64,000 bases of DNA from Laspinema palackyanum D2c (lineage in GTDB: Bacteria > Cyanobacteriota > Cyanobacteriia > Cyanobacteriales > Laspinemataceae). Positions 18,308-39,255 of the stretch are shown one piece after another; position 1 is the stretch's first letter; every line of letters starts with the position of its first letter. The notes under the pieces are model-generated. The model did not search any database. It worked only from the letters and a program-made list of their open reading frames with translations, and was not told the origin of the DNA. The stretch covers positions 62,001 to 126,000 of the forward strand of contig NZ_JAMXFD010000017.1 in assembly GCF_025370875.1 (NCBI RefSeq). Direction: 5' to 3'. The position numbers and the translations under genes are program-made.

Positions 18308-19198
18308 ATGAAAGTTTTCGAGTATCAGAAAAAGGACCATAAAGAATTTACCTCATTCTTTAGTTATGTGAGCGTATTCAACGAAACCCGTTGCATAGAA
18401 AACCATTACCATGCTGCAAAGGTCTTTAAATCGCCTAATGGAGAGGTAATATTTCCCGAAAACTGGAAAGAATCCAGGAAATGGGCTAAAGCCGGAATCC
18501 GACAAATAGGCTGGAAAATAGGCAATTTTATCTTGCCGGTGAGGATGAATAACCAAGGATATCAACTAGAGGATTTCGGGATACAGTGGTATATCCTACT
18601 CTGGTACAAACACTTGTATCAAAATCCCTGGAAAGTAGAATACCTTCAGCAGTTTGACAAATTCAATGACCAATATAAAAGCAAAAATTTTCCGTTCGGG
18701 CAATCCGATGTCTTGCTAAAAGTCAAGCAAGATGGGCTGGATGGGTTACGCTCAATGGCAATAGAACTGTGGAATTTGCTAAGTTATAAGTCACTAATGA
18801 TTGACTATAATTTGCTAAAGATTAAGTATGGATTTATCTGCCATGAGGTTAATCTTAATGGAGAAATGACGGAGCTATCCCAACAAATATACGAGTGTTA
18901 TCCTGGGGTGTACGAGTCTTATCGAGATAGTTTGCTATCCTGTTGTTTAGGAGATATTCGTGTCATTCCTGTTTCTAATAGCCTATCGGTGGTCAACTTA
19001 TTCACCCAGATTAATGCGCGAACTGATGTAGCCTCCTTGAGGAAATGCGTAATCAAATCGGCTAGTTTGCAAGAAACTTCTCATTCTGCGCCAATTTATT
19101 TGCCTGAAACTATCTTCGATGGAATTGCTGATGACGACGCTTCTCAAGTTTTATCGTTGATTGAGAACCACTTAATGCCCGTAGCAATTTGTCGCTAA
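18308..19198 (+). CDS. NADAR-like plus macro-like protein, paralogue A (296 aa)
   Basis: The N-terminal half (FTSFFSYVSVF, IENHYHAAKVF, IRQIGWKIG) resembles the NADAR fold, which acts on ADP-ribosylated guanosine and riboflavin intermediates. The C-terminal half (EVNLNGEMTELSQQIYECYPGVYESYRD, GDIRVIPV, VVNLFTQ, IYLPETIFDG) follows the macro-domain pattern, with NxxGxM but without the usual GAG loop. A second gene at 38320 has the same layout. ADP-ribose recognition is a reasonable inference; activity is uncertain given the missing residues. It is preceded by leader element L2. Confidence 0.55.
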   Translation: MKVFEYQKKDHKEFTSFFSYVSVFNETRCIENHYHAAKVFKSPNGEVIFPENWKESRKWAKAGIRQIGWKIGNFILPVRMNNQGYQLEDFGIQWYILLWYKHLYQNPWKVEYLQQFDKFNDQYKSKNFPFGQSDVLLKVKQDGLDGLRSMAIELWNLLSYKSLMIDYNLLKIKYGFICHEVNLNGEMTELSQQIYECYPGVYESYRDSLLSCCLGDIRVIPVSNSLSVVNLFTQINARTDVASLRKCVIKSASLQETSHSAPIYLPETIFDGIADDDASQVLSLIENHLMPVAICR

Positions 19199-19204
19199 CC
19201 TTTA

Positions 19205-19247
19205 GGGAGGATGACGCTAAATTTTAGTATCTTCCCCGATTTTTTTA
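19205..19247 (+). terminator. Terminator between convergent genes
   Basis: GGGAGGAT and ATCTTCCC form an imperfect stem around an AT-rich loop, followed by CGATTTTTTT. Located after the NADAR/macro-like gene and just before the convergent WD40 gene end. Confidence 0.65.
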
Positions 19248-19253
19248 CCCATT

Positions 19254-20774
19254 CTAACGATCCAAACTCGTTAAACGCCAGACCCGGGCGGTGTTATCCA
19301 AGGAGGCGGTGACGAGGCTTTCCCCATCCGGGCTGAAACTCGCACTGATGAGGCTATCTTGATGGCCCGTTAATTCGCCGATAAGTTGACCACTGATATT
19401 CCAAACCCGGGCGGTGTTGTCCGTGGAGGCCGTGACGATGCTCTCCCCATCTGGGCTGAAACTGGCTGTGTAGACCCGACCCTGATGGCCGGTGAGTTCG
19501 GCAAGCAATTCGCCACGGATGTTCCAGACCCGGGCGGTATTGTCCCCGGAGGCGGTGAGTATGCTGTCCCCATCTGGACTGAAACTAGCGCTGCTGACCC
19601 CACCCCGATGACCAGTGAGTTCGGTAAGCAGTTGACCACGCAAGTCCCAAACCCGAGCGGTTTTGTCTATGGAAGCGGTGAGGATATGTTCTCCGTCTGG
19701 GCTGAAACTGGCACTGATGACCCAACCCTGATGGCCGGTGAGTTCAGCAACAAGTTGACCACGCCGGTCCCAGACTCGGGCGGTTTTGTCCAACGAGGCG
19801 GTGAGGATATATTCTCCGTCTGGGCTGAAACTAGCGCTGATGACTGAATGCTGGTGGCCGCTGAGTTCGGTGACGGGCTGACCCCGCCGGTTCCAGACTC
19901 GGGCTGTGTCCCCGGAGGCCGTGACGATACTCTCCCCGTCTGGGCTGAAACTGGCACTAACGACCCCATCTTGATGGCCGGTTAGTTCAGCGACAAGTTC
20001 ACCACTGCGGTCCCAGATTCGGGCGGTGTTGTCCGTGGAGGCGGTGACGATGCTCTCTCCGTCCGGACTGAAACTGGCGCTGATGACGCTATCTTGATGG
20101 CCGGTGAGTTCAGCGATAAGCTGACCCCGGATGTTCCAGACCCGGGCGGTGTTCCCAGAAGCCGTGAGGATGTGTTCCCCGTCCGGGCTGAAACTGGCAC
20201 TAACAACCGCCTCTTGATGCTGAAGTTGATTGTGTTCTAAGAGCGTGGTGATGGTGGGGTGTAAGGCCAGCATCAGGGTTCCTTTGGGATAATCCGCTAA
20301 GTTTTGCCCAACGCTCATGGTTAAGACTAATCCATCCATTGGGTGCATTTCAAATGGTGGTAAAGCATTTAAGTCTGGGCGTTCAAATCTGGTTTTTTCT
20401 GGGGCTTTCTCCCAGGCTTGAGTGGCTTTGATAGTGAATCCTCCGGTGACTGCGGAGGCGATTAAGGAGGCGGCAAACATTCCAGTCCCCCAGACAATTC
20501 GCTGTTTTGTTTTCGGATTCACCTGCGCTAATATGTGATGATAATTTTTTCCCAGGGGTTTTAACGGGTTACCTTTCTCCCAAAATTTCGTTGCCTGTTG
20601 ATTAGGTACTACCGCCGCATCAGTTTGACGCAGGATGAATCTAATTTGACCCCTTAGAGTATCTAAAGTGGCTGTGAGTTTTGCATCTAATCCAGCTTGA
20701 TTCTCAATTAAATCTTTTGGCACAGCTTGTAATTCTCCTGACGATTTTAAAGCGGATATGCGACTGAGTTGCAA
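19254..20774 (-). CDS. WD40 beta-propeller protein with membrane segment (506 aa)
   Basis: A 90-residue cytoplasmic head precedes one membrane span (VWGTGMFAASLIASAVTGGF, near 94-113), then about 60 linking residues. Eight WD40 repeats of 40-41 residues follow, each with SASFSPDGE, TASxDNTARVWN and ELTGHQ. Eight blades would close a propeller. Repeats are nearly identical in protein and DNA, a sign of recent amplification or gene conversion. Such propellers in filamentous cyanobacteria serve as interaction platforms, often with NACHT or kinase domains, none of which is fused here. Confidence 0.9.
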   Translation of the reverse strand: MQLSRISALKSSGELQAVPKDLIENQAGLDAKLTATLDTLRGQIRFILRQTDAAVVPNQQATKFWEKGNPLKPLGKNYHHILAQVNPKTKQRIVWGTGMFAASLIASAVTGGFTIKATQAWEKAPEKTRFERPDLNALPPFEMHPMDGLVLTMSVGQNLADYPKGTLMLALHPTITTLLEHNQLQHQEAVVSASFSPDGEHILTASGNTARVWNIRGQLIAELTGHQDSVISASFSPDGESIVTASTDNTARIWDRSGELVAELTGHQDGVVSASFSPDGESIVTASGDTARVWNRRGQPVTELSGHQHSVISASFSPDGEYILTASLDKTARVWDRRGQLVAELTGHQGWVISASFSPDGEHILTASIDKTARVWDLRGQLLTELTGHRGGVSSASFSPDGDSILTASGDNTARVWNIRGELLAELTGHQGRVYTASFSPDGESIVTASTDNTARVWNISGQLIGELTGHQDSLISASFSPDGESLVTASLDNTARVWRLTSLDR

Positions 20775-20835
20775 GGGTCCCGTGGCTAGTCAGTGGTATC
20801 TTGTCAATGCTGCACAGCAGCAGCTATGCCTACTT

Positions 20836-26066: not shown

Positions 26067-26068
26067 TT

Positions 26069-26966: not shown

Positions 26967-26981
26967 AACAAATTTTCAATT

Positions 26982-27002
26982 ATTTCACCCTATCCGAAAG
27001 GC
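26982..27002 (-). promoter_or_regulatory. Leader element L3
   Basis: On the minus strand this variant reads GCCTTTCGG, three variable bases, then GGGTGAAAT, ending 15 bases before ATG 26966. It is one base longer than most copies and lacks the final C of TCGC. Confidence 0.5.
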
Positions 27003-27079
27003 TTTTATTTGAATCTTATTTTTTCCTTTTTCTATCTATCTGACCTCCATCTGATAGCAAACAGAGGCCAAATGGGATA

Positions 27080-28552
27080 TTAAGCTAAGACCAAAGCCCG
27101 TTGTGCCGAACTAACAGGAACCCATTTCTGGTTTTTGTAGACGTACCATTTGCCCTTAGTTTGGTCAAATGTTTCAACAAGACATCCAAGCAAAATAAAC
27201 TGTTGAGCACGGTAATTTACTAGGTCTTTCGGGTAGCTATCACCACAGAATTGGTTCGTGTTCATATCGCGGAACCAGTAGAGTCCCGTGTCTTCGTTCT
27301 TCTCGACCCGAATCGTCCGAGTCTGCGGCTGTTTTGGCGAGGACTTCATAGGTTGTTTCGCCGGTGTCTGTTGCGTGGGTGTTAGTTGCGGAGTTGTCGG
27401 TTGAGTGGGTGCAGGTTGTTTCGCCGGTGTCGATCGCCCCGGTGTCGGTTGCAGGGTTGCAGGTTGCGTGAATGTCGATCGCCCCGATGTCAATTGCCCC
27501 GGTACAGCTTGCGTGGATGTCGGTTGTTTCGCCGCCGGTGTCAGTTGCTCCGGTGTCGGTCGTGTGGTGGCCGAGTTAGCGATCGGTTTGATGCGGCTCC
27601 AGTTGATGCTTGCACTCGCTAGTTCCTGAAGGTCCACTTCGTCGTCACCCGATTTTGCTGGTGCAGGTTGGGGTGCAGGCTGCGGGGTTGCCCGGTTAGG
27701 ACTGAGTTTGATGTGCGTCCAGTTGATAGCTGCACTCGCCAATTCGTTGAGGTCCACTTGGTCCTCGTCTTTGGCGTTCGAGTTAAATACTTGCCAATCG
27801 CTATACATCGAACGCTGATGCAACTCTTGGCACATCACCCGCAAGTTGGTGGCCGTGGCAGTCACTCGTTTTCCAAAAGTACCACGCGGATTCGAGTAAC
27901 GGAGCCACTCGCCCTGCTGCTCCACGGTCCCCAGGATTTTGGCTTGCTCCCGTCCCATGCGATCGCGCAAATCTGCCACCACACGATATCCGTCGGCAGT
28001 GCGGACCAACCGGAACCCAGGCGCTAGGATTAAACCGGGTTGGAGTTGGACTGTTTCGGGGGGTGCGGATTCCGGCTGCTCTTGTCGTTGCTGGAAAGGA
28101 TAGACATAGAGCGGTTTTTCCAGCCAAGGCGACTGGTTGAGTTCGGGGGCAGCCATTCGTAAATGCTTGCACTTGCCCTCGACTAAGCCAGACTGGAACT
28201 GGAACGAACGGCAGGTGCAACTGGCTTCGGCAAGCTCATACCCACGCAACTCCCGACCATCCCAACTGTGGACTCGCACCTGATTGTCCTCGCGGGTAAT
28301 GCCATAGACGCTCCAGCCTTGAGACGAACAGCGGCGCGTCTGAATCTTGCCATCCACGGTCTGGTAGGTCACCAGAGCTTTGAATTTGAGTTCGTGGTGG
28401 ACGATATGGCCCCGGTGCCATATCGGTTTACGATACGGCTCGAAGCGCACACTAATCGCACGGGACACATTCTGGTAATGCTTGATATGGTCCCAAATCG
28501 CCTCGTCTAGCAATTCGGGCGATTTGTAGTAGGCAATGACTACGGTTGTCAT
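27080..28552 (-). CDS. SWIM zinc-finger protein with repetitive Pro/Thr linker (490 aa)
   Basis: A SWIM motif, CxC followed by CxH (CTCRSFQFQSGLVEGKCKH, near 130-148), binds zinc and commonly contacts DNA or protein. A duplicated segment (VDLNELASAAINWTHIK and VDLQELASASINWSRIK) follows, then a long Thr/Pro/Gln linker of repeats such as TPAKQP. A C-terminal domain (YWFRDMNTNQFCGDSYPKDL) closes it. The linker DNA is a degenerate tandem repeat and may vary in length. It is preceded at distance by leader element L4 and a hairpin. Role unknown; plasmid maintenance or recombination is possible. Confidence 0.75.
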   Translation of the reverse strand: MTTVVIAYYKSPELLDEAIWDHIKHYQNVSRAISVRFEPYRKPIWHRGHIVHHELKFKALVTYQTVDGKIQTRRCSSQGWSVYGITREDNQVRVHSWDGRELRGYELAEASCTCRSFQFQSGLVEGKCKHLRMAAPELNQSPWLEKPLYVYPFQQRQEQPESAPPETVQLQPGLILAPGFRLVRTADGYRVVADLRDRMGREQAKILGTVEQQGEWLRYSNPRGTFGKRVTATATNLRVMCQELHQRSMYSDWQVFNSNAKDEDQVDLNELASAAINWTHIKLSPNRATPQPAPQPAPAKSGDDEVDLQELASASINWSRIKPIANSATTRPTPEQLTPAAKQPTSTQAVPGQLTSGRSTFTQPATLQPTPGRSTPAKQPAPTQPTTPQLTPTQQTPAKQPMKSSPKQPQTRTIRVEKNEDTGLYWFRDMNTNQFCGDSYPKDLVNYRAQQFILLGCLVETFDQTKGKWYVYKNQKWVPVSSAQRALVLA

Positions 28553-28576
28553 CTAAAATCTCCTTAGATATATGTT

Positions 28577-28611: not shown

Positions 28612-28631
28612 GGTCAGACTCTATCTCGTCT

Positions 28632-28895: not shown

Positions 28896-29219
28896 TCAAT
28901 TGTTTCTTAAAATTCTGGCTTTATGTTCAGCGATTTCCGGGCAAATTTCCCATTCGCTTTTCCAAACATATTTTAGTTCGACCTTGGGATTGTTATTGAT
29001 GGCTCGGATTTCGGTTCTAATCTGTTCACAAACCTGCTCTAATGTTTCCGTGGTCAGGTACTGATATACCCCGTAGAGCGGATTGAGTAGGATAATCCAA
29101 AGTATCACTGCGTAAGTAATCCACTCTAGGCCAGTAGCTATCTTATCCCAGCAAGTTTCTTTCTCAGTGGGCGGAAAGATTGCAATAAATTCGGCTTCAC
29201 TCATTCCTAATTTTTTCAT
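28896..29219 (-). CDS. Small single-span protein (107 aa)
   Basis: One membrane segment (WITYAVILWIILLNPLYGVYQYL, near 33-55) lies between an acidic head and a charged tail. The topology would place the tail in the cytoplasm or periplasm depending on flanking charge. It carries leader element L5 and GGAG before the ATG. No family recognised. Confidence 0.6.
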   Translation of the reverse strand: MKKLGMSEAEFIAIFPPTEKETCWDKIATGLEWITYAVILWIILLNPLYGVYQYLTTETLEQVCEQIRTEIRAINNNPKVELKYVWKSEWEICPEIAEHKARILRNN

Positions 29220-29234
29220 GATTTTTTCTCCTTT

Positions 29235-29254
29235 ATTTCACCCCCTGCGATAGC
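29235..29254 (-). promoter_or_regulatory. Leader element L5
   Basis: GCTATCGCAGGGGGTGAAAT on the minus strand, 15 bases before ATG 29219, preceded by an A-rich tract and followed by AAAGGAG. Confidence 0.75.
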
Positions 29255-29414
29255 TTTTTTATTTACTTTTGGTTTTTTTTATTCCTGAAATTGTCCTGAG
29301 TTTCTGCTAAGTCCATCCATTTGGGCGTTGTGGTCCCGTCGCGAATCAACCCACCTCATCATGAAGACTGCCAACGCGATGAGTCAGGCTCGAACCAACT
29401 GGACATTACCCTGG

Positions 29415-29655
29415 GCGATCGCAACACTTGAAGCAACCGACCCAATGACAATGAGTGCCGATGCGATCGCAATACTGAAGTAATCACCGAGATTGCCGAG
29501 GCGATCGCTCATGCGTGAACCAGCCTACCCAATCACGCAGGCTGCTAAGGCGATCGCATGAATGCAACACTAGCCCAATCATTCAGTCTGCCCTTGGCGA
29601 TTGCTTGTGCGCGAATCAACCGGCCCATTCGCAGAGACTGCCCTTGGCGATCGCA
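29415..29655 (+). repeat. HIP1-phased degenerate tandem repeat
   Basis: GCGATCGC or GCGATTGC recurs at 29415, 29463, 29501, 29550, 29597 and 29647, i.e. every 38-50 bases. The intervening sequence is similar only in part (CCTTGGCGATCGCATGA, CCAATCA, CAGCCT). No gene fits here. It runs into the 75-bp repeat array. Confidence 0.6.
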
Positions 29656-29679
29656 TGATGCACCAGCTATACAGCCTGC

Positions 29680-29950
29680 CCGGGGCGCGACACGAATGCG
29701 GTACAACTGGCTGACTCGAAAACGGACAGGCACCAACTCAGGTGACATTCCTGACAAGCGCGGGACACGAACGCGGGACAACTGGCTGAAGCGAGGACCT
29801 GCCACGATGATGGACTCAGTAACGTACCCAGCCGGAGCGCGACACGAACGGGGGACAATTGGCTGAGGCGAGAACTGACAGGCACCAACTCAGGTAACGT
29901 ACCCAGCCGGAGCGCGACACGAACGGCGAGAAACTGGCTCGGGTTTTCCC
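29680..29950 (+). repeat. Tandem repeat of about 75 bp, four copies
   Basis: GACACGAA occurs at 29689, 29764, 29841 and 29916 within longer units containing CGGAGCGCGACACGAACG, ACAACTGGCTGA and GACAGGCACCAACTCAGGT. The spacing is 75, 77 and 75 bases. A related 50-bp pair lies at 30751-30850. Confidence 0.75.
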
Positions 29951-29967
29951 AAGCCAGCGCATGAACT

Positions 29968-30132
29968 CTAGCGGTAAATCGTCAGGTCAGTGGGGGCGAA
30001 CGCTATCGGTTGACCGAGTTGGGAGGTCCATGTGCCGATGAGTTGGGCTTGGTTGGTGGTGACCTTGACCCAGCGACCGCCGCCGTAGCGGAAGGTGCTG
30101 CCGATAGTTAGTTGTTGGAATCGGATGAGCAT
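29968..30132 (-). CDS. Very small protein (54 aa)
   Basis: The best start is ATG 30132 (MLIRFQQLTIGSTFRYGGGRWVKV). A GTG nine codons upstream lies inside the leader element and would add KLLREFA. The pattern IGSTFxxxxxRWVKVTxxQA occurs in small plasmid and phage proteins of unknown role. The hairpin covering its upstream region may control translation. Confidence 0.55.
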   Translation of the reverse strand: MLIRFQQLTIGSTFRYGGGRWVKVTTNQAQLIGTWTSQLGQPIAFAPTDLTIYR

Positions 30133-30138
30133 AGCAAA

Positions 30139-30169
30139 CTCTCGCAATAACTTCACTCATTGCGAGAGC
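30139..30169 (-). promoter_or_regulatory. Leader element L6 within a 10-bp hairpin
   Basis: GCTCTCGCAATGAGTGAAGT (30150-30169, minus strand) ends 17 bases before ATG 30132. Its CTCTCGCAAT pairs perfectly with ATTGCGAGAG (30139-30148), forming a 10-bp hairpin with a ten-base loop just before the start codon. Confidence 0.65.
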
Positions 30170-30181
30170 TTTGCTATCATT

Positions 30182-30676
30182 TTATCGACTACAATTTTGT
30201 CCTTTGGCTTTACGTTGAGCGCCAAGTAAAGTGGACAAATAGGTGCAAGAGCGGTGGTTTCCCGACATGAGCGTAATCCGTCCTAATCGTCCGTTTGTTA
30301 CTCCTAAATGGTTGAACTGGACACGGTAGATGTTGTTACGATGATAAAAGGTGGTATTTTCTGCATCAATCTGGACCTGGGCTACACCGAGACTCTGCCA
30401 GTCCGCATTTGTGCAGGTTCCACCCCATCGACGATGATGCACGGAATATTCGATGTTGCCTTGATGTTCGCGGAAACAGGCTTCGTGGGTTTCTTTAGTT
30501 TGCCGCGCTGTGGATTTGGCATTGAGTAGGACTTGATAGGCATTATCTCGTGCTGAACGAGTGCGATAGTCCTGCAAAAATGAGAGCCAAGAAGGAATGG
30601 CAATTGCTGCGATAATGGCGATAATCAAGGCGGTGATGAGCAGTTCAACGAGCGTAATTCCTTTCTGAGTTTGCAT
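30182..30676 (-). CDS. Type IV pilin-like protein (164 aa)
   Basis: A prepilin N-terminus is clear: short basic leader MQTQKG, cleavage after Gly6, Glu at +5 and a hydrophobic helix (ITLVELLITALIIAIIAAIAIPSW). Residue +1 is Ile where Phe is usual. The globular part has four or more cysteines. Length and lack of pilin assembly genes nearby suggest a minor pilin (FimT/GspH-like) using host machinery, perhaps for DNA uptake or surface contact. It carries leader element L7. Confidence 0.85.
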   Translation of the reverse strand: MQTQKGITLVELLITALIIAIIAAIAIPSWLSFLQDYRTRSARDNAYQVLLNAKSTARQTKETHEACFREHQGNIEYSVHHRRWGGTCTNADWQSLGVAQVQIDAENTTFYHRNNIYRVQFNHLGVTNGRLGRITLMSGNHRSCTYLSTLLGAQRKAKGQNCSR

Positions 30677-30691
30677 CGTTTGATACCGATA

Positions 30692-30711
30692 ACTTCACCC
30701 CCGGCGATAGC
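30692..30711 (-). promoter_or_regulatory. Leader element L7
   Basis: GCTATCGCCGGGGGTGAAGT on the minus strand, 15 bases before the pilin ATG at 30676. Confidence 0.7.
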
Positions 30712-30750
30712 TTGCTCGTTGTTGTTAGTTTTTACTCGGTGTTCTAGTTT

Positions 30751-30850
30751 ATCCATCCGCCCCGGAGCGCGACACGAACAAGCGAGGACAGACCCCGCTC
30801 ATCCATCCGCCCCGGAGCGCGACACGAACGAGCGAGGAAAGGCCCCGCTC
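30751..30850 (+). repeat. Two 50-bp tandem repeats
   Basis: The units 30751-30800 and 30801-30850 both run from ATCCATCCGCCCCGGAGCGC to GCCCCGCTC-like ends. They share the CGGAGCGCGACACGAAC core with the array at 29680-29950. Confidence 0.8.
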
Positions 30851-30859
30851 ATCCAGGCG

Positions 30860-31372
30860 CTATCGGCTACGGACCGGGTGGAGGCGTTTGTAGGAGGCAC
30901 TTACCGGATCGAAGTTCACGACGGTAATCCCTTGGTCGAGCGCATATTCCACGGCATGACAGGTTCCGCCACTGCGTCCATCCCACACGGACAGAACCAA
31001 GCTGCATCGGTCTACCATCCATTTGTTGCGGTCGTTCATGCAGCCTGGAAAATAAGTGCGATGGGAAAGGTAATGGACACTATCGGCTTTTTCTAGCAAG
31101 TGGAAATAGTAGCGTTGACTAGATTTAGGCCATTTCTTATATTGTTCTTTACAGGGAATTGCCGCAATTAACCGTAAGTCCGGGTCATCAGCCACCATAC
31201 CTGCTGCCCACTGGTCCACGCCGATTGCCATGCCCGAGATGAAACTGTCAAACCCTCGTTCTTTGGCTCGGTCAATCATCCGTTGTAATGCAATTTGGAC
31301 GGGAAATATATCGGTTGCTGCAAATTGACGATGGCCGGTGAATGCTGCGGTTTTTTCTCGAATGAGTTCCAT
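30860..31372 (-). CDS. SLOG-superfamily protein, DUF1273/YspA-like (170 aa)
   Basis: The motifs FTGHR (11-15), FISGMAIGVDQWAA (about 44-57), IPCKEQYKKWP, FPGCMNDRNKWMVDRCSLVLSVWDGRSGGTCHAVEYA and a final DP are those of the DUF1273/YspA branch of SLOG, a Rossmann-like fold that binds or processes nucleotide-derived ligands. The length is normal. The family is linked to ADP-ribose or NAD derivatives in conflict systems. It lies just downstream of the DUF4326 gene. Confidence 0.85.
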   Translation of the reverse strand: MELIREKTAAFTGHRQFAATDIFPVQIALQRMIDRAKERGFDSFISGMAIGVDQWAAGMVADDPDLRLIAAIPCKEQYKKWPKSSQRYYFHLLEKADSVHYLSHRTYFPGCMNDRNKWMVDRCSLVLSVWDGRSGGTCHAVEYALDQGITVVNFDPVSASYKRLHPVRSR

Positions 31373-31393
31373 GATGTTCCTCCAAAACAGGGC

Positions 31394-31426
31394 TAATAAA
31401 AGAGAGTGACGTTGCCGCCACCCTCT
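31394..31426 (-). terminator. Terminator between DUF4326 and SLOG genes
   Basis: On the minus strand AGAGGGTG and CACTCTCT pair around a short loop and are followed by TTTTATT. Located just after the stop of the DUF4326 gene. Confidence 0.65.
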
Positions 31427-31437
31427 CGAAAGACTAC

Positions 31438-32733
31438 CTACATTTCAATCGGTTCTGTCGCAGCTTTCTCCAGCTTTTCTGCATTGACTGCACTGACTCC
31501 CAGACTCGCATCCACGTTATCGGCAAACTCTGGATTTTGAGCCAACCACGCCTGGGCCTCCGCTTGCTGGCGCTTGCGAATCGCGACAATCTCTAGCTTG
31601 TTCGATTTTGCCGGTTGATTGCGTTTCGGCTGCGACTTCTGCACAGGTTTTTCGACTGCTTCAACTGGCTGACTATCTGAAACTTGGCTCCGCAATTGTT
31701 GAGGTTGCTTTTGATAGGACTTGCGCTTTTCTAGCTGGGCTTTGTTAATCTCTAGCAATGCGGCCTTGATTTGGTCTAGCTCTGGCACCTCGCTGTTTGC
31801 ATTGATGAGCTGATCGCCAAAATAAGCCTTGGCCGTAGACAACAACATGGAAGTCCGGTGATTGAGGGATTTGACCGTATTTGCCTTGGCAATCTCGCTC
31901 AAGAAGAACTCCGCCTCGAACTCTTCATAGAACTGGTTGCGATAAGTAGCCCATAAGCCATCTTTCCAATCGTTAATCCGGTCCCAGTCATATTCGGCTT
32001 GACTGTAGCTACCGTCTGGATTACGCCGCCCTGGAGCTATCAAGTAAACATCGAGTTGACCCATTTCATACGCATTCCGCCAAATCTCTTTCTTGCTAAT
32101 CGACTGCCACCAGAAGTGCCGCAATCCATAATAAAGCTGCTTGAAAATGTACTGCAAATGCTTGATTTCGTACTCAGCTTCACGATTCAGTTTCGCTTGC
32201 TCGATATGCGCTGGATTGAAGATGTTCGAGATTGAATTAAGTTGCATAGCTGACTCCAAAACTAGATTTTCTTTCACTTCCAGCGATAGCCCTTTATTTT
32301 TTACTCGCTTCTTTTTGCTTACTTCTTGCTCTTTCTTCTCTTTCTTCACTTGCTTTTTCCCTTCGACTAGATTTTCCTGAATCAACCAATGAATGGCCTT
32401 GACAATCACATCGCCATGACAAGCCAACGGAGCGCAATAACAAGCCAACTCCAGAGCTTCGCCCCGCATCGTCCGTTTTGCTAACATAATCAACTCAGCA
32501 AAAGCCGCATTGGACTCGCCCCGCAGACCCGCTTTAATTTGCGCCCAGAGCCAATGACGATACTTCTCAACGACCATTTCGCGATTGCCATCTTTGCCAA
32601 TATGGAACGGATTCGCCAATGCAGATTGTGCCAACTTGTAACGTGCATTGAAACGCCCAATGTAGTGCCGGTTTACTCCCCGGAATTGGACTGCTGTGCC
32701 GTTGACCACCGAGAGATTGATGTGTGTATTCAT
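31438..32733 (-). CDS. DUF4326-domain protein with long C-terminal extension (431 aa)
   Basis: Residues about 22-115 (YIGRFNARYKLAQSALANPF, IGKDGNREMVVEKYRHWLW, LACYCAPLACHGDVIVKAI) are the DUF4326 signature, a small domain of unknown function common in phages and plasmids. A Lys-rich linker (KKQVKKEKKEQEVSKKKRVK) leads to a helical domain with several Trp and a charged tail. GGAGG precedes the ATG. It is the first gene of the minus run beside the gene-free region at 32.8-34.1 kb. Confidence 0.8.
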   Translation of the reverse strand: MNTHINLSVVNGTAVQFRGVNRHYIGRFNARYKLAQSALANPFHIGKDGNREMVVEKYRHWLWAQIKAGLRGESNAAFAELIMLAKRTMRGEALELACYCAPLACHGDVIVKAIHWLIQENLVEGKKQVKKEKKEQEVSKKKRVKNKGLSLEVKENLVLESAMQLNSISNIFNPAHIEQAKLNREAEYEIKHLQYIFKQLYYGLRHFWWQSISKKEIWRNAYEMGQLDVYLIAPGRRNPDGSYSQAEYDWDRINDWKDGLWATYRNQFYEEFEAEFFLSEIAKANTVKSLNHRTSMLLSTAKAYFGDQLINANSEVPELDQIKAALLEINKAQLEKRKSYQKQPQQLRSQVSDSQPVEAVEKPVQKSQPKRNQPAKSNKLEIVAIRKRQQAEAQAWLAQNPEFADNVDASLGVSAVNAEKLEKAATEPIEM

Positions 32734-32914
32734 GATGTTGTCCTCCTAAGTTAACTGTGCGAGGCTCTTCTTCCCCCGCCCCCTTGAGGGTTATAGGGGT
32801 GCGAGGAAAGCTTAGAAGTCGTTAGGCGGGGGTTGCCGCAGACGGTGTACGCAATGAACAGTCAACTGCCACCGCCTTACGAATTCTTAGCTAGGTCAAG
32901 GCTTACGGAGACTT

Positions 32915-32985
32915 AGCGATCCCCGTCGGGCTTGCAAGAACTTAGGGATTCTACCCAATACTTTGGTAGCCCGACGGGGATCGCT
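32915..32985. repeat. Perfect 18-bp inverted repeat
   Basis: AGCGATCCCCGTCGGGCT (32915-32932) and AGCCCGACGGGGATCGCT (32968-32985) enclose 35 bases. Confidence 0.9.
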
Positions 32986-33002
32986 TACGTCGGAGTTACT
33001 TG

Positions 33003-33121
33003 CTCGGAGTCGCTTAGAATCTCTTGCCAAATACGCTACCTGGTAGGATTTCTTAGCGACGCCAGGAGCTTAGAAATCCTTCAGGTAGCCTATTTGGTTA
33101 GAGATTGTTTGCGAGTCTGAG
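33003..33121. repeat. 119-bp imperfect hairpin
   Basis: Arms 33003-33042 and 33082-33121 (40 bases each) match as inverted repeats with short mismatches at regular intervals. An inner pair, AGGATTTCT (33045-33053) and AGAAATCCT (33072-33080), continues the stem. The mismatches fall about every ten bases, giving a bulged cruciform or long hairpin. Confidence 0.85.
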
Positions 33122-33191
33122 GCCTTTACCGATTCCGACCACCCCTATAGACTAGAATTGCTGGGGGGGGCTGGCCCAGCGGCCATGAGCG

Positions 33192-33438
33192 CTCCCTTGG
33201 GGGCGGGGGGGGCGCGAATGAGGGAGCGGGGAGGGGATGATGGGCGATGTCTCAACTTGTTGAGGCCAGAACATCACCCCTCCCCCGACCGAATGAGCAC
33301 TCAATGTTTGTGCGATCGCCAAGATTTGACTGAACCTCCCCTGGGGGTCGGGGGGCGCGAGTGAGGGAGTGGGGAGGGGCTGACGGGCAATGCCTCGTAG
33401 GCCAGCGCGTCACCCCTCCCCCGACCGAATGAGCACTC
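33192..33438 (+). repeat. Two G-rich direct repeats with internal hairpins
   Basis: The units 33192-33302 and 33336-33438 share CTCCC, a G-run, GCGCGA, GAGGGAG, GGGGAGGGG and the end CACCCCTCCCCCGACCGAAT followed by GAGCACTC. In each, GGGGAGGGG can pair with CCCCTCCCC. The period is 144 bases. Confidence 0.8.
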
Positions 33439-33455
33439 TAGTTTTGGATGCGATC

Positions 33456-33529
33456 GCGAAGCGTCTCCTGAAGGAGAATCGCGAAGCGTCTCCTGAAGGA
33501 GAATCGGCAAACGTCTCTTGAAGAATCGC
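33456..33529 (+). repeat. 25-bp tandem repeat (two perfect, one partial)
   Basis: The unit GCGAAGCGTCTCCTGAAGGA plus GAATC is present at 33456-33480 and 33481-33505, and a degenerate copy follows. The same small repeat recurs once near 63639 and in altered form near 61210 and 57650. It is a common cyanobacterial dispersed repeat type. Confidence 0.8.
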
Positions 33530-34124
33530 CAAGTCTGGATGAACGGTTAGCACTTCATTGGGTTGCACTCGGACTCACTCGGTTCAGTTTGAAGAATCCT
33601 CATTGAATCAAGATTAGACTGATGTCCCGCAACTCACTTGCAAGTTCTTTGAGTTTAGGCGCGGTGTTTCCAAACATTAACCTGCAACATTATCAAGAGT
33701 TTGAACTTAACAAGATTTATCGAAATTGAGCCGGATAGAACAACATCAACGAGCTACAGGCCCAGTTTTAATGTGCTAAATGCTGAAGTATGTCCGCTAT
33801 TTTAGCATAGCGAAACCCTACTAACCAAAAACTATTTCATCGAATTTGGCTGCATCGACTTTCGACGAGCTTCGATGACTATTCGTGATTATTATCACCA
33901 TTTAGTCCGTTCCGAATTGCCAGAATTATGACGCACCTTATCCGGTAAACTTGAAACTAACCCATTCACTTTCAGCTTTTTTCTTGAGCCGATGACCTGC
34001 CTAAAATTATCGCTAACACCAGCCCCGAACAGCACCAACCTAGCCAACCCGACCGCCAACCAACTAGACAAAGCTGCATCTGATATGCTACCAGTCGAAC
34101 CGTTCCGAGTCTAAAAGGGAGTAT

Positions 34125-34144
34125 TAATTTCCCCGGGGAAATTA
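34125..34144 (+). promoter_or_regulatory. Perfect 20-bp palindrome before the DUF4417 gene
   Basis: TAATTTCCCCGGGGAAATTA ends 16 bases before ATG 34161, just before GAGAGGAGG. It could be an operator or a start-proximal mRNA hairpin controlling the downstream genes. Confidence 0.7.
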
Positions 34145-34160
34145 GAGAGAGAGGAGGCGG

Positions 34161-34787
34161 ATGAGAGTGTATGGCGGTGGTGCATTGCCCACAGACAATG
34201 AGTGGGACATTCCGGTGCTAGATGAGCAGCGGTGTGCGGGGATGATGGCGATGCCGGTAACGCCGTGGGGGACCACGAACGTGCAGGTGGTCCGGGGTGG
34301 AACCTGGCATTTTTACATTTGGGATGACAAGTTTGAGGGACTCTGGAAGAAGCCGGACAGAGTGCCCGAGGGTGAGCCGTTCGGTTGCGTGGAGGTCAAT
34401 TTCAGCATTGACCCAGACGGACCGGCTGCGGTGGCGTTGTACCAGATTTATCGGAAACGCTGGCTAAGTCGGTATTGGCAAAGTCGGGGGCTTAACATTG
34501 TCGTGGACTTGAACGTGCCGATGCGATTTGAGCGGTTGAATTTGTTAGGTGTGCCCCGGGGCTGGAGTGCGTATGCGACCCGAGGCAGTTGGGACCTAGA
34601 GAAGTTGCTCCATCAGTATGCGTTGGCGCAGGAGCATTCGGGGCGGTCTAATCCGTTGTTCTGGGTGTACGCTGGGGGCGAGCAAGTCCGAGCTTTGGCC
34701 CAGGCGAATCGGTGGCTGTACTGTGACACTTACCGAGGACCGTTGGTTTACAAGGGGCGATATCAAGCAGATGGTAGCAAAGGGTAA
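34161..34787 (+). CDS. DUF4417-domain protein (208 aa)
   Basis: The pattern TWHFYIWDDKFEGLWKKPDR, VEVNFSIDPDGPAAVALYQI, YRKRWLSRYWQSRGLNIVVDL and FERLNLLGVPRGWSAYATRG matches DUF4417, a family of plasmid and phage proteins of unknown function. The D, W and R/W positions are conserved. GGAGG precedes the ATG, and a 20-bp palindrome lies just upstream. The end overlaps the next gene by 17 bases, so the pair is translated together. Confidence 0.8.
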   Translation: MRVYGGGALPTDNEWDIPVLDEQRCAGMMAMPVTPWGTTNVQVVRGGTWHFYIWDDKFEGLWKKPDRVPEGEPFGCVEVNFSIDPDGPAAVALYQIYRKRWLSRYWQSRGLNIVVDLNVPMRFERLNLLGVPRGWSAYATRGSWDLEKLLHQYALAQEHSGRSNPLFWVYAGGEQVRALAQANRWLYCDTYRGPLVYKGRYQADGSKG

Positions 34788-35799
34788 ATCGTCTGGGTGT
34801 TTAGTCGGGTTCATGAATTCGCTGGCAACGAGCGCGGTCACGGGCATAGTCGTTAGTGGGGGCATCGACCCGAGTGGGGCGCTCTCGCAAGCTGTTGAAT
34901 CGTTCGTCGAGTGCAAAGCGGAAGGGGCCGCCAAAATCGGCGTGGAATCCACCCTGCAAAAGACGGGCAATCAGCGATTTGGCAAAGTACCCACCGGCGT
35001 GACCAAAGCGGGGGAGACCGTGGTAGGCCGTTACGGAGAGCGCACGAACCGTCGAGAAGTCAAGTATGTCACCATCAATGGCACCCGCGAAAATTTGCGT
35101 GCAGCTTCCCGAGAGCGCAACAGCGAGTTGTTCACTAAGATGCCTGGGGATTCTCAGCAACGTCAGCAATACCTAGACAATGCCTGGATACAGCAAGAAC
35201 GAGCGATCCAAGACCTGCGGACCCAGTATGACCTGTATGGACACAATTCCCGGGAAGGCCGGTTGATTGAGCAAGAACTGACCAGCCGCACCTGGGAGAT
35301 GAGCCAGATTGAACGGGCCGCAGGGGTGCGCGACGGCTGGGCAGGGAACGCGACCAAACAAAGTGGGAACACGCGAGATTTTGGTTACGTTCCGGACTCC
35401 TATGCAGGACAAGGGGGCTTTGGGGAGCGCGTCCGACGCGGGGAGATGGGCGAGGGTTTACGAACGCAACTCCAGCACTTTTCAAATTTGAACCAAGACT
35501 GGCGCAGTGACTTTTGGGATAACGAGTTTTTGGCATTGGGAAACAACAACACCGAGGGGTTGCAAGCCAACCGGAGCAACTACATCAATCGGTTGCAAAA
35601 TAAAGTTGAATATACGGTTTACCAACTCGACCTGTATCGGGGGACAGCGCAGGAGCGTTATTTGCAAACAGAAATCTTGCGCGATATGCGGCTGATGCGC
35701 GATATTTCTATCAGGGACACCAGCTACCAAAGTAACTTTAATTCGACTTATGAACGTTTTGGTTCGGTCCTACCCAATTCGATGCGAAATCAGCTTTAA
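34771..35799 (+). CDS. Partner protein of the DUF4417 gene (342 aa)
   Basis: The chosen ATG (34771) overlaps the DUF4417 gene; ATG 34813 is an alternative. A short hydrophobic stretch (SGCLVGFMNSLATSAVTGIVV) near the start could enter the membrane. The long polar remainder is helical, Arg/Gln/Asn-rich, with several Glu-Arg-rich segments (LRTQYDLYGHNSREGRLIEQ), and contains no enzyme motif. No family recognised. Confidence 0.55.
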   Translation: MVAKGKSSGCLVGFMNSLATSAVTGIVVSGGIDPSGALSQAVESFVECKAEGAAKIGVESTLQKTGNQRFGKVPTGVTKAGETVVGRYGERTNRREVKYVTINGTRENLRAASRERNSELFTKMPGDSQQRQQYLDNAWIQQERAIQDLRTQYDLYGHNSREGRLIEQELTSRTWEMSQIERAAGVRDGWAGNATKQSGNTRDFGYVPDSYAGQGGFGERVRRGEMGEGLRTQLQHFSNLNQDWRSDFWDNEFLALGNNNTEGLQANRSNYINRLQNKVEYTVYQLDLYRGTAQERYLQTEILRDMRLMRDISIRDTSYQSNFNSTYERFGSVLPNSMRNQL

Positions 35800-35810
35800 C
35801 CACCAAAACC

Positions 35811-36452
35811 GTGCAAATCAACCGACATCTGGCTGCCCGGGCCAAGAACAAACTAGCTCCACTCTTCCGCCAAGCCATTGCCCAAGGAATTCTTACTCGT
35901 GATGATTACCTACTTGATATTGGCTGCGGAGTGGGTGCCGACTTCAATCAGTTGCGGCAGATGGGCTATCGGGCTTCGGGCTGGGATTTGTACTACTATC
36001 CGCTCTGTTGTGGTTGTTGCCATCGTCCCGATATTGTTAGCCTTAATTATGTCTTAAATGTCATCGAGAATCCCCAAGAACGACGCGAGTTATTGACGAA
36101 TTCTTGGCAGCTTTGCACGAAATCGTTGCTCATCGCATTACCTCGTTGTATCAAGCAGACCGGGACAGCTTACGCGGACGGACGACTCAACTCTTATCGC
36201 TGCTTCAATCGCGCCTTTGGGACGGACGAATTCTACGAACTCCTCGAAAGCGTTACGGGCCGACTCCCTCGACGGTTGGGCGACGATTTGGCCTGCTGTT
36301 TCAAGGATGACCCAGCCATCGAACTGGATAATTACTATCAACTCATCAGTTTGCTGCATAACGAAAAGCAGCGGTTATCGCTCGTACAAAAACGACGATT
36401 ACGAGCGCTCATCCGTCAATCTTCCGGCTGCAAGACCATCGGCGGCAAGTGA
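35811..36452 (+). CDS. Phosphorothioation-associated methyltransferase-like protein, paralogue 1 (213 aa)
   Basis: This starts with GTG. The SAM-binding motif LDIGCGVGADFNQL lies near 40-53, followed by GWDLYYYP and ADIV-like DIVSLNYVLNVIENPQERRELL. That NxxYVLNVIExPxER signature is typical of the putative methyltransferases found beside Dnd phosphorothioation genes (TIGR04096 type). No dnd genes are present. The gene faces a second member of the family at 36644, tail to tail. Its target is unknown; the family may act on DNA or RNA. Confidence 0.72.
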   Translation: MQINRHLAARAKNKLAPLFRQAIAQGILTRDDYLLDIGCGVGADFNQLRQMGYRASGWDLYYYPLCCGCCHRPDIVSLNYVLNVIENPQERRELLTNSWQLCTKSLLIALPRCIKQTGTAYADGRLNSYRCFNRAFGTDEFYELLESVTGRLPRRLGDDLACCFKDDPAIELDNYYQLISLLHNEKQRLSLVQKRRLRALIRQSSGCKTIGGK

Positions 36453-36616
36453 GCCAGGGCTGCATCCAATTTAGCCAAGACAAGCTGGCTCTGCTGCAAG
36501 GCAATCCGAGTGTGGCCGCGCTCCAAGGCGGTGCAAACGGTCTGCACTTCTCGGCGAGTTAATAGCAGCAATTGACGGGCTTTTTCAGCAGTTTCTAAGG
36601 CGGTTGGGTCGGTCAT
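36416..36616 (-). CDS. Small helical protein between the methyltransferases (66 aa)
   Basis: A two-helix polypeptide (ALETAEKARQLLLLTRREVQ, ALQQSQLVLAKLDAALAHL), probably coiled coil. Its 3' end overlaps that of the plus-strand methyltransferase by 37 bases. Probably co-transcribed after the gap from the 36644 gene's neighbourhood only if a separate promoter exists; function unknown. Confidence 0.45.
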   Translation of the reverse strand: MTDPTALETAEKARQLLLLTRREVQTVCTALERGHTRIALQQSQLVLAKLDAALAHLPPMVLQPED

Positions 36617-36643
36617 TGCACTAAAATAAAATCTAGTTTGCGG

Positions 36644-37561
36644 TTATTGTATCGCACTCAGGTACTCGATTCGTGCCGCTATAATCCGCATCTGGTCACG
36701 ACGGGCCAGAGCCGCTTCAATCCATTGCCGTCGCGGTGAACCGACTGCCCCTGCGTGTAAACTTTTGTTGAGCTTGCCCGTGCTGGGATTGGGGATGTCA
36801 GGCAAGGGCGATCGCAGTCTAGGATAACGATAGCCTTTAGCGAGGATGCTATCCCAGCGGACTTGTTCGGACGGAACCCAGCCAGAAGCAAGGAGGTGAG
36901 TCCGCTCGTCTTGATAGCGCTTGAGGAGTTGACGGCGTTGGGTGCGAGTTAGGGCGTGAGGTTGCAGGGTATCAACGCGGTCATCTTTGGCGAACAAATA
37001 CGCACCGGTCGCGCCCAATAACGGTGTCGGAAACAGCCCCAGAATCGCACATAAAAACGTCTGGATTTCCGCTGCATCATAGAATTTGCAGAAGGTGTTC
37101 CATTGGGTGCGGTAACCATCGCCATCCACTCGCCAATGGGAATGCGGCTCACCCCAGCTAATCGCCACGACTAGCTGCTCTTGCGCTAGATGGTACGCTT
37201 CCACTAGGACCGCCTCTCGTTCTATCGGGTCACGAATCACATTCAGCACGAACAACAACGTCACAACATCCGCTGATTGTTTGCGCTGTGGTCGGTGGTA
37301 CGGGTCATAGCCAGTCGAGCGGATTCCTTGTTCTTGCAGGTAATCCACATCGAAGCCGTAACCGCAGCCATAGTCAAAATGAGTGCGGTCTGGGGTGAGG
37401 ATGCCTGTTTCCAGGCACTGGCGGATTGGGACACTAGGAGCGCGGCGGATGGGGGCGCTGCGTCTTGGGGTAGGCGCGAAAATGGCGGTAGACCTCCAAT
37501 ACGACGCTGTTATGATACCCCAAGACTGAGCCAGATTAGCCTTGGTAGTAGTCGCGCTCAT
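36644..37561 (-). CDS. Phosphorothioation-associated methyltransferase-like protein, paralogue 2 (305 aa)
   Basis: Recognised by FDYGCGYGFDVDYLQEQGIRSTGYDPYHRP, ADVVTLLFVLNVIRDPIEREAVL, LVVAISWGE and DGYRTQWNTFCKFYDAAEIQTFL. These correspond in order to motifs of the Dnd-associated putative methyltransferases. The C-terminal 100 residues are basic and unique. The first 40 residues may not be translated. Two family members in 1.8 kb without dnd genes is unusual. Confidence 0.8.
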   Translation of the reverse strand: MSATTTKANLAQSWGIITASYWRSTAIFAPTPRRSAPIRRAPSVPIRQCLETGILTPDRTHFDYGCGYGFDVDYLQEQGIRSTGYDPYHRPQRKQSADVVTLLFVLNVIRDPIEREAVLVEAYHLAQEQLVVAISWGEPHSHWRVDGDGYRTQWNTFCKFYDAAEIQTFLCAILGLFPTPLLGATGAYLFAKDDRVDTLQPHALTRTQRRQLLKRYQDERTHLLASGWVPSEQVRWDSILAKGYRYPRLRSPLPDIPNPSTGKLNKSLHAGAVGSPRRQWIEAALARRDQMRIIAARIEYLSAIQ

Positions 37562-37736
37562 CTAGCCAGCGTTGTTCGGCTGCGGTTGTGGCTTCATCCA
37601 CGGGCATGGACTCGTCGTATTCTTCAAGCCAGTCGGGCAGGTCAAATTCGGACGATGTTTCAGCTACGTTCAGTTTAGGGATGAACAGGTCAGAAATAGC
37701 CATGATTTGGTAAGATTGATTCGGTTGGTTTTCCAT
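37536..37736 (-). CDS. Small acidic protein (66 aa)
   Basis: Acidic C-terminal half (SSEFDLPDWLEEYDESMPVDEATTAAEQRWLDERDYYQ). The end overlaps the start of the methyltransferase by 26 bases. AACGAGG precedes the ATG, and leader element L8 lies 33 bases upstream. Function unknown. Confidence 0.55.
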   Translation of the reverse strand: MENQPNQSYQIMAISDLFIPKLNVAETSSEFDLPDWLEEYDESMPVDEATTAAEQRWLDERDYYQG

Positions 37737-37769
37737 GAGAATGACCTCGTTAATTGATAGATTGCATGA

Positions 37770-37789
37770 GTTTCAAACCAGGCGAGAGC
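37770..37789 (-). promoter_or_regulatory. Leader element L8 (divergent copy)
   Basis: GCTCTCGCCTGGTTTGAAAC on the minus strand, 33 bases before ATG 37736; the GGGTGA part is replaced by GTTTGA. Confidence 0.5.
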
Positions 37790-37818
37790 TTGTGATACTC
37801 CCACCTGGTTCAAGCGGT

Positions 37819-38205
37819 TTAGTGAGGAATTTCGTCTAGTTCTTCTTCATCTTGGTGGAAACGGTTTTGATAATCTTGATAACGTTGGCACGATTTGCGG
37901 TTGGTTTCGAGGAGTTGTTCTAGGTTTTTGCCGAGTTTAACTTGGGCATATTCTAGGAGTTGCTTGAGGGTGTACTTGCGGTTCTCAGGCGTTCCAAACG
38001 TTTTGGCGAAGTTTTGCTTGTACTGTTTCCAGTCAAATTTCTCTTTGCTTCCAACTTTGGCAATAAATCCGACTTCTTCACGAAGTGCGTAATAAACTTG
38101 GCGATACAACCGTTCCGAATAATCGGAGACTTGATAACCTAGTGCAGAATCGTCAATGATGTTGTTTTTCACGGTTTTGTTGTTGGTTTCAGTTGCTTGA
38201 GTCAT
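37819..38205 (-). CDS. Unknown helical protein (128 aa)
   Basis: Highly helical and charged, with aromatic residues (YSERLYRQVYYALREEVGFIAKVGSKEKFDWKQYKQNF) and an acidic tail (HQDEEELDEIPH). No motif identifies a function. Carries leader element L9. Confidence 0.55.
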   Translation of the reverse strand: MTQATETNNKTVKNNIIDDSALGYQVSDYSERLYRQVYYALREEVGFIAKVGSKEKFDWKQYKQNFAKTFGTPENRKYTLKQLLEYAQVKLGKNLEQLLETNRKSCQRYQDYQNRFHQDEEELDEIPH

Positions 38206-38222
38206 GATTCAATTCCTCGTTA

Positions 38223-38242
38223 ATTCCACCCTACGCGAGAGC
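38223..38242 (-). promoter_or_regulatory. Leader element L9
   Basis: GCTCTCGCGTAGGGTGGAAT on the minus strand, 17 bases before ATG 38205, followed by AACGAGG and preceded by AACAAAAAG. Confidence 0.7.
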
Positions 38243-38319
38243 CTTTTTGTTAGTTTTTGTTGGTTTCTGTTCATGAATAATTCTTTCTCGTTCACTTAAT
38301 TTTGCTCTGAATTATTCAT

Positions 38320-39255
38320 TTAGTTATGCTGTCTTTTCATCGTTTTCATTGTCTTTCCTAGACTTTCGCTCCCACGGACTCCGGTGTTTTCGGGCCAGTC
38401 GCACAGAATCGCACCGGGGCAGTTTGTGGCGATCGCATCGGTAGGCAGCGGTGGCAGGTAAACGCTCAGATGCCGTTGGGTGGCGAACTGATGGAGTTTG
38501 GTCAAGCAGTCCTGCAAGGCGATCGCTGCGCCTACCGCATCATCGGCCAGAGCCAGATGAGCCAGGAACAACGGCGGATTGTCTAGGATGCGAATCAGTT
38601 GGAGTTTGCCCGGGGTGAACGAGTCACGGTGCTGACAGTATTTGGCGTAGGCAGTGGGGAAAGCCTGGGCAATGGCTTGAGGATAGTGGCGATCGATGAT
38701 TACTGCGATGATGCCGGTGTAGATGTCACAATCTAGCCTTGCTCGAATCTCCAGCATCGGCAGGGGTTTAGTTAGTTGAACCATTGGCTGACACCGATGG
38801 CGCAAAAACAACGGACCGTCACTGACTAAAATTTGCCAGATGTGAGCGGTGGAAAACTGGATGGATTCGTCTTCGTCTTGGAATTGGTCGAACTGGGCCG
38901 CGTACTCAATCAGTGCTTGGTGGTCTCGCACATACTTGAGCCACAGGGCAATATGGTACTGTTCTCCCCAGTCGAGAGAGTCCGGTTCGTGACAAATCGG
39001 CAGCGTCCAATCGCCCAAACGCCAACCAATATGCGCCAACCCTAGATTCGCCCAATCCTTTGACTCTAGGGCATTCTGCGGTGTCTTGCCATTCCCGAAT
39101 AGTTTGGCCCGATGATAATGGTTGGCAATCGTGTCCACTCGACCGAACGAGCGCACCCGACAATGATGGCTCGAAAAACGCCGGTCTCCTCGATGATGAC
39201 ATTGCAAAACCCGTTTCCCTTGCTGTTCAACCCAGGGTGCTTGAATCAGTTGCAT
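38320..39255 (-). CDS. NADAR-like plus macro-like protein, paralogue B (311 aa)
   Basis: Same layout as the 18308 gene: IANHYHRAKLFG, WANLGLAHIGWRLGDWTLPI, QYHIALWLKYVRD and FDQFQDE in the NADAR-like half, then YPQAIAQAFPTAYAKYCQH and LQLIRI in the macro-like half. The macro half has lost the NxxGxM motif and the glycine loop. This suggests a binding protein that has lost catalysis, or one acting on a different ligand. ADP-ribose relations are inferred from these similarities only. Carries leader element L10. Confidence 0.55.
   Translation of the reverse strand: MQLIQAPWVEQQGKRVLQCHHRGDRRFSSHHCRVRSFGRVDTIANHYHRAKLFGNGKTPQNALESKDWANLGLAHIGWRLGDWTLPICHEPDSLDWGEQYHIALWLKYVRDHQALIEYAAQFDQFQDEDESIQFSTAHIWQILVSDGPLFLRHRCQPMVQLTKPLPMLEIRARLDCDIYTGIIAVIIDRHYPQAIAQAFPTAYAKYCQHRDSFTPGKLQLIRILDNPPLFLAHLALADDAVGAAIALQDCLTKLHQFATQRHLSVYLPPLPTDAIATNCPGAILCDWPENTGVRGSESLGKTMKTMKRQHN

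What the first reader, a model, noticed from the sequence alone, without database searches (positions are those of the whole stretch)
18308..39255. Paralogous NADAR/macro-like proteins near SLOG and DUF4326 genes
The proteins at 18308 and 38320 share an N-terminal NADAR-like half and a C-terminal macro-like half with lost glycine loops. A SLOG (DUF1273) protein and a DUF4326 protein lie at 30860 and 31438. NADAR and macro domains reverse or bind ADP-ribosylation, and SLOG proteins handle nucleotide-derived ligands. All may belong to a NAD or ADP-ribose based defence or counter-defence set; both paralogues carry the leader element.
Basis: inference. Interest (0 to 1): 0.6.

Follow-up and report, generated by a model that had tools for sequence, protein, structure and literature searches.

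The report
NADAR–macrodomain paralogues with dead macro halves
A cyanobacterial genome carries two related proteins that join two kinds of ADP-ribose-removing domain, next to two other ADP-ribose-linked genes; one domain has lost its catalytic loops in both proteins yet is still kept by selection, which suggests it now binds rather than cuts.

Summary
The proteins at 18308 and 38320 are paralogues (28% identity; the only two copies in this Laspinema genome). Each has an N-terminal NADAR domain of the DarT1-antitoxin type and a C-terminal macrodomain of the SCO6735/BT1257 (ALC1-like) type, by profiles and predicted structures. Relatives with the same fusion and intact macro loops exist, so the window copies lost theirs, probably independently: 18308 groups with an intact relative, 38320 does not. 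Both halves of both genes are under purifying selection, so this is not decay. The NADAR triad Glu-Lys-Asp is complete in 18308; its Glu is Ala in 38320. SLOG (30860) and DUF4326 (31438) are real. These four domains recombine as fusions and neighbours in phages, plasmids and cyanobacteria far above chance. The network was already predicted for viruses (Iyer, Burroughs, Aravind 2021, 2022), so the system is known in outline. Not found in the papers read: retained pseudo-macrodomains, and AlkB-DUF4326-SLOG fusions, one 8 kb from an intact NADAR-macro gene. Best reading: an ADP-ribose eraser and binder set protecting a mobile-element-like region from ADP-ribosylating toxins. Function is inferred, not shown.

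The parts
18270..18289 (+). leader element copy of paralogue A (AGCTATCGCGGAGTGCGAAA), 38 nt before ATG
18308..19198 (+). paralogue A: NADAR-macrodomain fusion, 296 aa; NADAR Glu31/Lys38/Asp121 kept, macro loops changed
18308..18784 (+). NADAR (DarT1-type) half of paralogue A
18800..19195 (+). degenerate SCO6735/BT1257-type macrodomain half of paralogue A
30860..31372 (-). SLOG (YpsA/DUF1273) protein, 170 aa
   Evidence: PF06908 9.4e-16
31438..32733 (-). DUF4326 protein, 431 aa; DUF4326 domain at residues 21-112 (32398-32673), C-terminal part unassigned
   Evidence: PF14216 6.7e-18
37819..38205 (-). small conserved gene just downstream of paralogue B; its homologue lies next to a NADAR remnant in another cyanobacterium (39% identity)
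38320..39255 (-). paralogue B: NADAR-macrodomain fusion, 311 aa; NADAR Glu is Ala, macro loops absent
38761..39255 (-). NADAR half of paralogue B
   Evidence: 8bat Z 10.6, residues 1-165
38392..38745 (-). strongly degenerate macrodomain half of paralogue B
   Evidence: 2afc Z 12.3, residues 171-288
39272..39291 (-). leader element copy of paralogue B (AGCGTTCGCCCAGGGTGAAG), 36 nt before ATG

Best explanation
The two proteins are paralogous NADAR-macrodomain fusions, part of the SLOG/macro/NADAR/DUF4326 ADP-ribose-processing network. Ancestrally such a fusion would be a two-headed eraser: the NADAR head hydrolyses guanine-linked ADP-ribose, and the SCO6735-like macro head hydrolyses thymine-linked (or other) ADP-ribose. 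In the window, paralogue A (18308) keeps a NADAR active site and uses its dead macro half as a binding or tethering module, for ADP-ribose, ADP-ribosylated DNA or the ART toxin itself. Paralogue B (38320) has lost both active sites and most likely works only by binding, as a sponge, toxin-binder or regulator. With SLOG (a predicted nucleotide-ligand sensor or N-glycosidase) and DUF4326 (a predicted phosphatase-like domain) they form a set that protects the region's DNA from ADP-ribosylating toxins or defence systems. Shown here: domain identity, loop loss, residue status, selection, synteny, association. Inferred: substrate, binding role, protective purpose.
For: NADAR identity: PF22397 and 8bat. 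The Glu and Lys seven residues apart and the FxxxxD motif align with G. lovleyi NADAR, which I map to E88, K95 and D171 of E. coli C7 NADAR by residue spacing (PMC11543638). Macro identity: BT1257/SCO6735 group. Intact relatives carry Asn and Gln at the SCO6735 Asn27 and Gln85 positions, and SCO6735 cleaves thymidine-ADPr and still inhibits DarT when catalytically dead (PMC9411070). Intact fusions hit the macro part of DarG models. Purifying selection on both halves: dN/dS 0.11-0.22. Independent macro loss: 18308 clade with intact C at 97/94 (NADAR half) and 97/96 (macro half), A+B clade AU p 0.036. Association: DUF4326 within 15 kb of 7 of 11 NADAR/macro sites and SLOG within 10 kb of 9 of 28 DUF4326 sites; compact SLOG-like/DUF4326/NADAR-macro gene run near a ParA-like gene in another cyanobacterium (L030); fusions DUF4326-macro-SLOG, SLOG-macro, DUF4326-NADAR. 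AlkB-DUF4326-SLOG fusions in three genomes fit cleaning of nucleobases.
Against: No activity is shown. No DarT is in the genome, so no partner toxin is known. Prior authors favour small-molecule ADPr derivatives as targets of phage NADAR and macro domains. Phage and YbiA NADARs hydrolysed guanosine-ADPr in vitro but did not protect cells from DarT1 (PMC11125620). SLOG and DUF4326 lack the strict leader, so co-regulation of all four is not shown. That the region is mobile rests only on gene content and patchy occurrence.
Confidence: 0.5

Rival explanations
1. The set degrades small diffusible ADP-ribose signals or toxic ADPr derivatives made by host immunity (TIR, SIR2, RES-type systems) rather than DNA adducts. 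This is the proposal of Iyer, Burroughs and Aravind for phages.
For: The same four domains co-occur in phage genomes and were proposed to split the work on different bonds of ADPr derivatives (PMC9503650; PMC7824862). No DarT in this genome.
Against: The closest characterised relatives of both halves act on nucleic-acid ADPr. AlkB fusions point to nucleobases.
Confidence: 0.3
2. The proteins are antitoxin-like erasers for a resident or neighbouring ART toxin not recognised here, i.e. a scattered toxin-antitoxin system.
For: NADARs and macrodomains are the antitoxins of DarTG1 and DarTG2.
Against: No DarT in the genome; gene order is conserved with the sister species without an ART identified among the genes scanned; the intact relatives examined are also without a recognised neighbour toxin.
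Confidence: 0.1
3. NADAR half as a YbiA-like N-glycosidase for damaged metabolites, with the macro half a structural appendage.
For: E. coli YbiA acts on riboflavin intermediates, as cited in PMC11543638.
Against: The half belongs to the DarT1-type family with Asp, not the YbiA type, and sits among other ADPr-linked domains.
Confidence: 0.05
4. Both genes are decaying remnants of a once-active fusion.
For: Loss of macro loops in both; NADAR Glu lost in 38320 and in the G143 orthologue of 18308.
Against: Open frames in two to three species, dN/dS 0.11-0.22 in each half at dS 0.5-1.0, conserved leader and synteny.
Confidence: 0.04

Closest known systems
DarT1-associated NADAR antitoxins (PF22397; G. 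lovleyi NADAR 8bat, E. coli C7 NADAR)
   Same: N half is of this family by profile, fold and catalytic Glu-Lys-Asp (in 18308)
   Different: shorter, fused to a macrodomain, no DarT partner; 38320 has lost the catalytic Glu
ALC1-like macrodomains SCO6735 and BT1257 (thymidine-ADPr hydrolase SCO6735)
   Same: C half is closest to this group; intact relatives keep Asn and Gln in place of the DarG/TARG1 lysine
   Different: window copies lost the glycine loops; 38320 also lost Asn and Gln
SLOG-Macro-NADAR-DUF4326 ADPr-processing systems of DNA viruses (Iyer, Burroughs, Aravind 2021, 2022)
   Same: same four domains, same fusions and neighbour pairs, including tandem NADAR-Macro
   Different: here in a cyanobacterial genome region, with two diverged paralogues whose macro halves are predicted dead, lying either side of the SLOG and DUF4326 pair within 21 kb
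DarTG2 antitoxin DarG
   Same: macrodomain eraser plus a second domain
   Different: second domain of DarG is not a NADAR and no toxin is present here

Membership tests
NADAR superfamily, DarT1/BC4488 type | sequence profile match | tested here: met
   7 of 11 alignment members hit PF22397 up to 1.3e-12; profile to 8bat 3.8e-7. The window copies themselves match only through relatives.
NADAR superfamily, DarT1/BC4488 type | NADAR fold | tested here: met
   38320 residues 1-165 to 8bat Z 10.6, rmsd 5.3 over 153 residues; for 18308 macro rows filled the list, so its N half was not tested by fold
NADAR superfamily, DarT1/BC4488 type | catalytic Glu, Lys and Asp (E88, K95, D171 of E. coli C7 NADAR) | tested here: inconclusive
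   18308 keeps E31, K38, D121 (met); 38320 has Ala for Glu but keeps Lys and Asp (not met)
NADAR superfamily, DarT1/BC4488 type | guanine-ADPr hydrolysis | not testable with these tools
   needs enzyme assay
ALC1-like macrodomains | macro fold and profile | tested here: met
ALC1-like macrodomains | intact substrate and phosphate glycine loops | tested here: not met
   lost in both window copies, present in G170/G143 and in phage relatives; so member by fold, not as an active hydrolase
DarTG1 toxin-antitoxin | linked DarT toxin | tested here: not met
   no PF14487 match in the whole genome
SLOG-Macro-NADAR-DUF4326 ADPr network | fusion or gene neighbourhood of these domains | tested here: met
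SLOG-Macro-NADAR-DUF4326 ADPr network | acts on ADPr derivatives in host conflict | not testable with these tools
   prediction only in the literature

The most novel reading that the evidence does not exclude
Two-headed DNA erasers (NADAR for guanine-ADPr, SCO6735-type macro for thymine-ADPr) belong to a broader nucleobase-cleaning island that also uses AlkB-DUF4326-SLOG proteins, and in Laspinema two paralogues have independently turned the thymine head into a non-catalytic binder that inhibits ART toxins by contact, with 38320 a pure decoy.
Probability: 0.2. Interest if true: 0.7.

Novelty: new variant of a known kind. Interest (0 to 1): 0.45.

Why it matters
NADARs strip ADP-ribose from guanine and certain macrodomains strip it from thymine. 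A natural fusion of the two, with intact and half-dead versions in related genomes, gives a ready test of whether counter-toxin proteins work by cutting or by binding. The AlkB-DUF4326-SLOG fusions give a handle on what DUF4326 does, since they tie it to a known class of nucleobase repair enzyme.

Tried and rejected
Decay: disfavoured by dN/dS and synteny. DarTG1 membership: rejected for lack of DarT. Viral-contig search with the two window proteins alone found nothing, and with one plasmid NADAR nothing; the broader alignment worked. The 9-row macro alignment had no stretch conserved enough to search with; a 4-row one worked. Covariation test of the leader hairpin: 86% of cells pair, but no compensatory change and no excess over shuffles, so RNA structure is not shown. 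Similarity of the DUF4326 protein's C-terminal part to the 37819 protein: only 10 residues, E 0.08, not claimed. tblastn of the 13013 protein against plasmids: no match, so conjugative status is not shown. NADAR rows for 18308 did not appear in the fold search because macro rows filled the list.

Full report
What is there. The window lies in a 133 kb contig of a 7.0 Mb Laspinema genome; the sister genome G079 is Laspinema sp. D2d by its contig. 18308 and 38320 are paralogues, 28% identical over 286 aa, and the only two copies in the genome.

Fold of the halves. The window proteins alone give no significant NADAR or Macro Pfam hit. Relatives settle the matter. G170 and G143 carry a fusion of similar length (308 aa) with intact macro loops. 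G048 carries the N half alone, and G050 and G062 the macro half alone. In an 11-member N-half alignment, seven members hit PF22397 NADAR-DarT1, best 1.3e-12, and the profile hits 8bat, G. lovleyi NADAR, at 3.8e-7. The macro-half profile hits BT1257 at 4e-24, SCO6735 at 2e-19, and DarG and TARG1. AlphaFold models (pLDDT 90 and 85) place the C halves at macro Z 18.8 and 12.3, best with BT1257 and SCO6735, and the N half of 38320 at 8bat Z 10.6. Caveat: macro and NADAR rows were part of the input alignments, so the models are not fully independent of the sequence evidence.

Active sites. In E. coli C7 NADAR the needed residues are E88, K95 and D171 (PMC11543638). The alignment to 8bat, with the residue spacing given in that paper, maps these to E31, K38 and D121 of 18308, all kept. 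In 38320 and its D2d orthologue the Glu is Ala; the same change occurs in the G143 orthologue of 18308. The intact macro halves have Asn and Gln at the SCO6735 Asn27 and Gln85 positions and lack the DarG/TARG1 lysine. SCO6735 cleaves thymidine-ADPr and, when catalytically dead, still inhibits DarT by contact (PMC9411070). 18308 keeps the Asn and Gln but has lost the phosphate-loop glycines and a loop of about eight residues; its orthologues have Ser for the Asn, a change that nearly abolished SCO6735 activity. 38320 has lost all of these. I therefore predict both macro halves to be inactive.

Selection and history. Pairwise dN/dS is 0.13-0.21 in each half of 18308 and its orthologues, and 0.11 (N) and 0.22 (C) for 38320. 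Trees of each half group 18308 with the intact fusion of G170 and G143 (97/94 and 97/96), leaving 38320 outside on a long branch. An 18308+38320 clade is rejected at AU p 0.036. So the macro loops were probably lost twice, and both products are kept by selection. The support against a single loss is moderate because the 38320 branch is long.

The set. In 291 genomes of the order, DUF4326 occurs in 26 and SLOG YpsA in 30. 9 of 28 DUF4326 sites lie within 10 kb of SLOG and 7 of 11 NADAR/macro sites within 15 kb of DUF4326; random placement gives tail probabilities below 1e-15, though related genomes are not independent. G028 has a tight run, SLOG-like, DUF4326, NADAR-macro, HTH, near a ParA-like ATPase gene (the SLOG-like protein was assigned by eye and has no Pfam hit). 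In phage and plasmid records I found DUF4326-NADAR next to SLOG, SLOG-macro followed by NADAR, DUF4326-macro-SLOG in one protein, and NADAR-macro fusions. In 72 viral NADAR loci, 11 have DUF4326 within 6 kb, 9 of these within 1 kb, and 7 have SLOG, 5 within 1 kb. G143 and G170 encode an AlkB-DUF4326-SLOG protein (872 aa, read in G143; the G170 copy inferred from its 879-codon frame and DUF4326 match) about 8 kb from the intact NADAR-macro gene, G219 a similar one, and G154 a separate AlkB between SLOG and DUF4326.

Leader. AGCNNTCGC-N5-GYGAA stands 35-38 nt before ATG of several genes here, including both paralogues; 8 strict copies against 0.04 expected. Seven of the 11 genome-wide matches to a longer form lie on this contig. 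It has a five-pair dyad, but without covariation. The SLOG and DUF4326 genes lack a strict copy.

Setting. The region is collinear, inverted, with most of the D2d contig at roughly 72-87% nucleotide identity. The NADAR-macro genes are found in four of the eight Laspinema genomes searched and the long form of the DUF4326 protein in two. The window encodes a tyrosine recombinase, BRO, GIY-YIG and HNH-like proteins, so a mobile origin is likely but not shown.

Verdict. The finding is real and the folds are as proposed. The system as a class is already predicted in the literature for viruses, including tandem NADAR-Macro proteins and DUF4326 fusions. New here, to my reading of those papers, are the selected pseudo-macrodomains, their probable twofold origin, and the AlkB-DUF4326-SLOG link. 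Function remains inference.

Noticed in passing
window 26970-42164 (- strand copies) and 18270 (+): Leader element AAGCTNTCGC-N5-GYGAAnT at fixed distance before the ATG of about ten genes of this region and of its D2d counterpart; dyad without covariation, function unknown.
   Followed up: partly
L028 17037-19655 (G143:C98), likely same in G170; L200 4444-7005 (G219): AlkB-type 2OG-Fe(II) oxygenase fused to DUF4326 and YAcAr SLOG in one protein; links DUF4326 to nucleobase repair.
   Followed up: partly
L028 7876-9357: RRXRR-HNH (IscB-like) gene next to the intact NADAR-macro gene of G143.
   Followed up: no
L037 4791-6311 (Allocoleopsis pMIC7113.01): DUF4326-macro-SLOG triple fusion annotated only as SLOG family protein.
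   Followed up: yes
window 37819-38205; L011 1006-1377: Small conserved protein beside NADAR-macro B whose homologue sits beside a truncated NADAR in G282; no Pfam family reaches significance.
   Followed up: partly
window 8853-9707: Cytosine-C5 methyltransferase-like gene appears split into two ORFs (read by eye).
   Followed up: no
window 19254-20774: WD40-repeat gene next to paralogue A lies in a stretch missing from the D2d counterpart region.
   Followed up: partly
window 32259-32300: Leader-like match inside the DUF4326 coding sequence, at the join of the DUF4326 domain and the unassigned C-terminal part; may be a relic of a gene fusion or chance.
   Followed up: no
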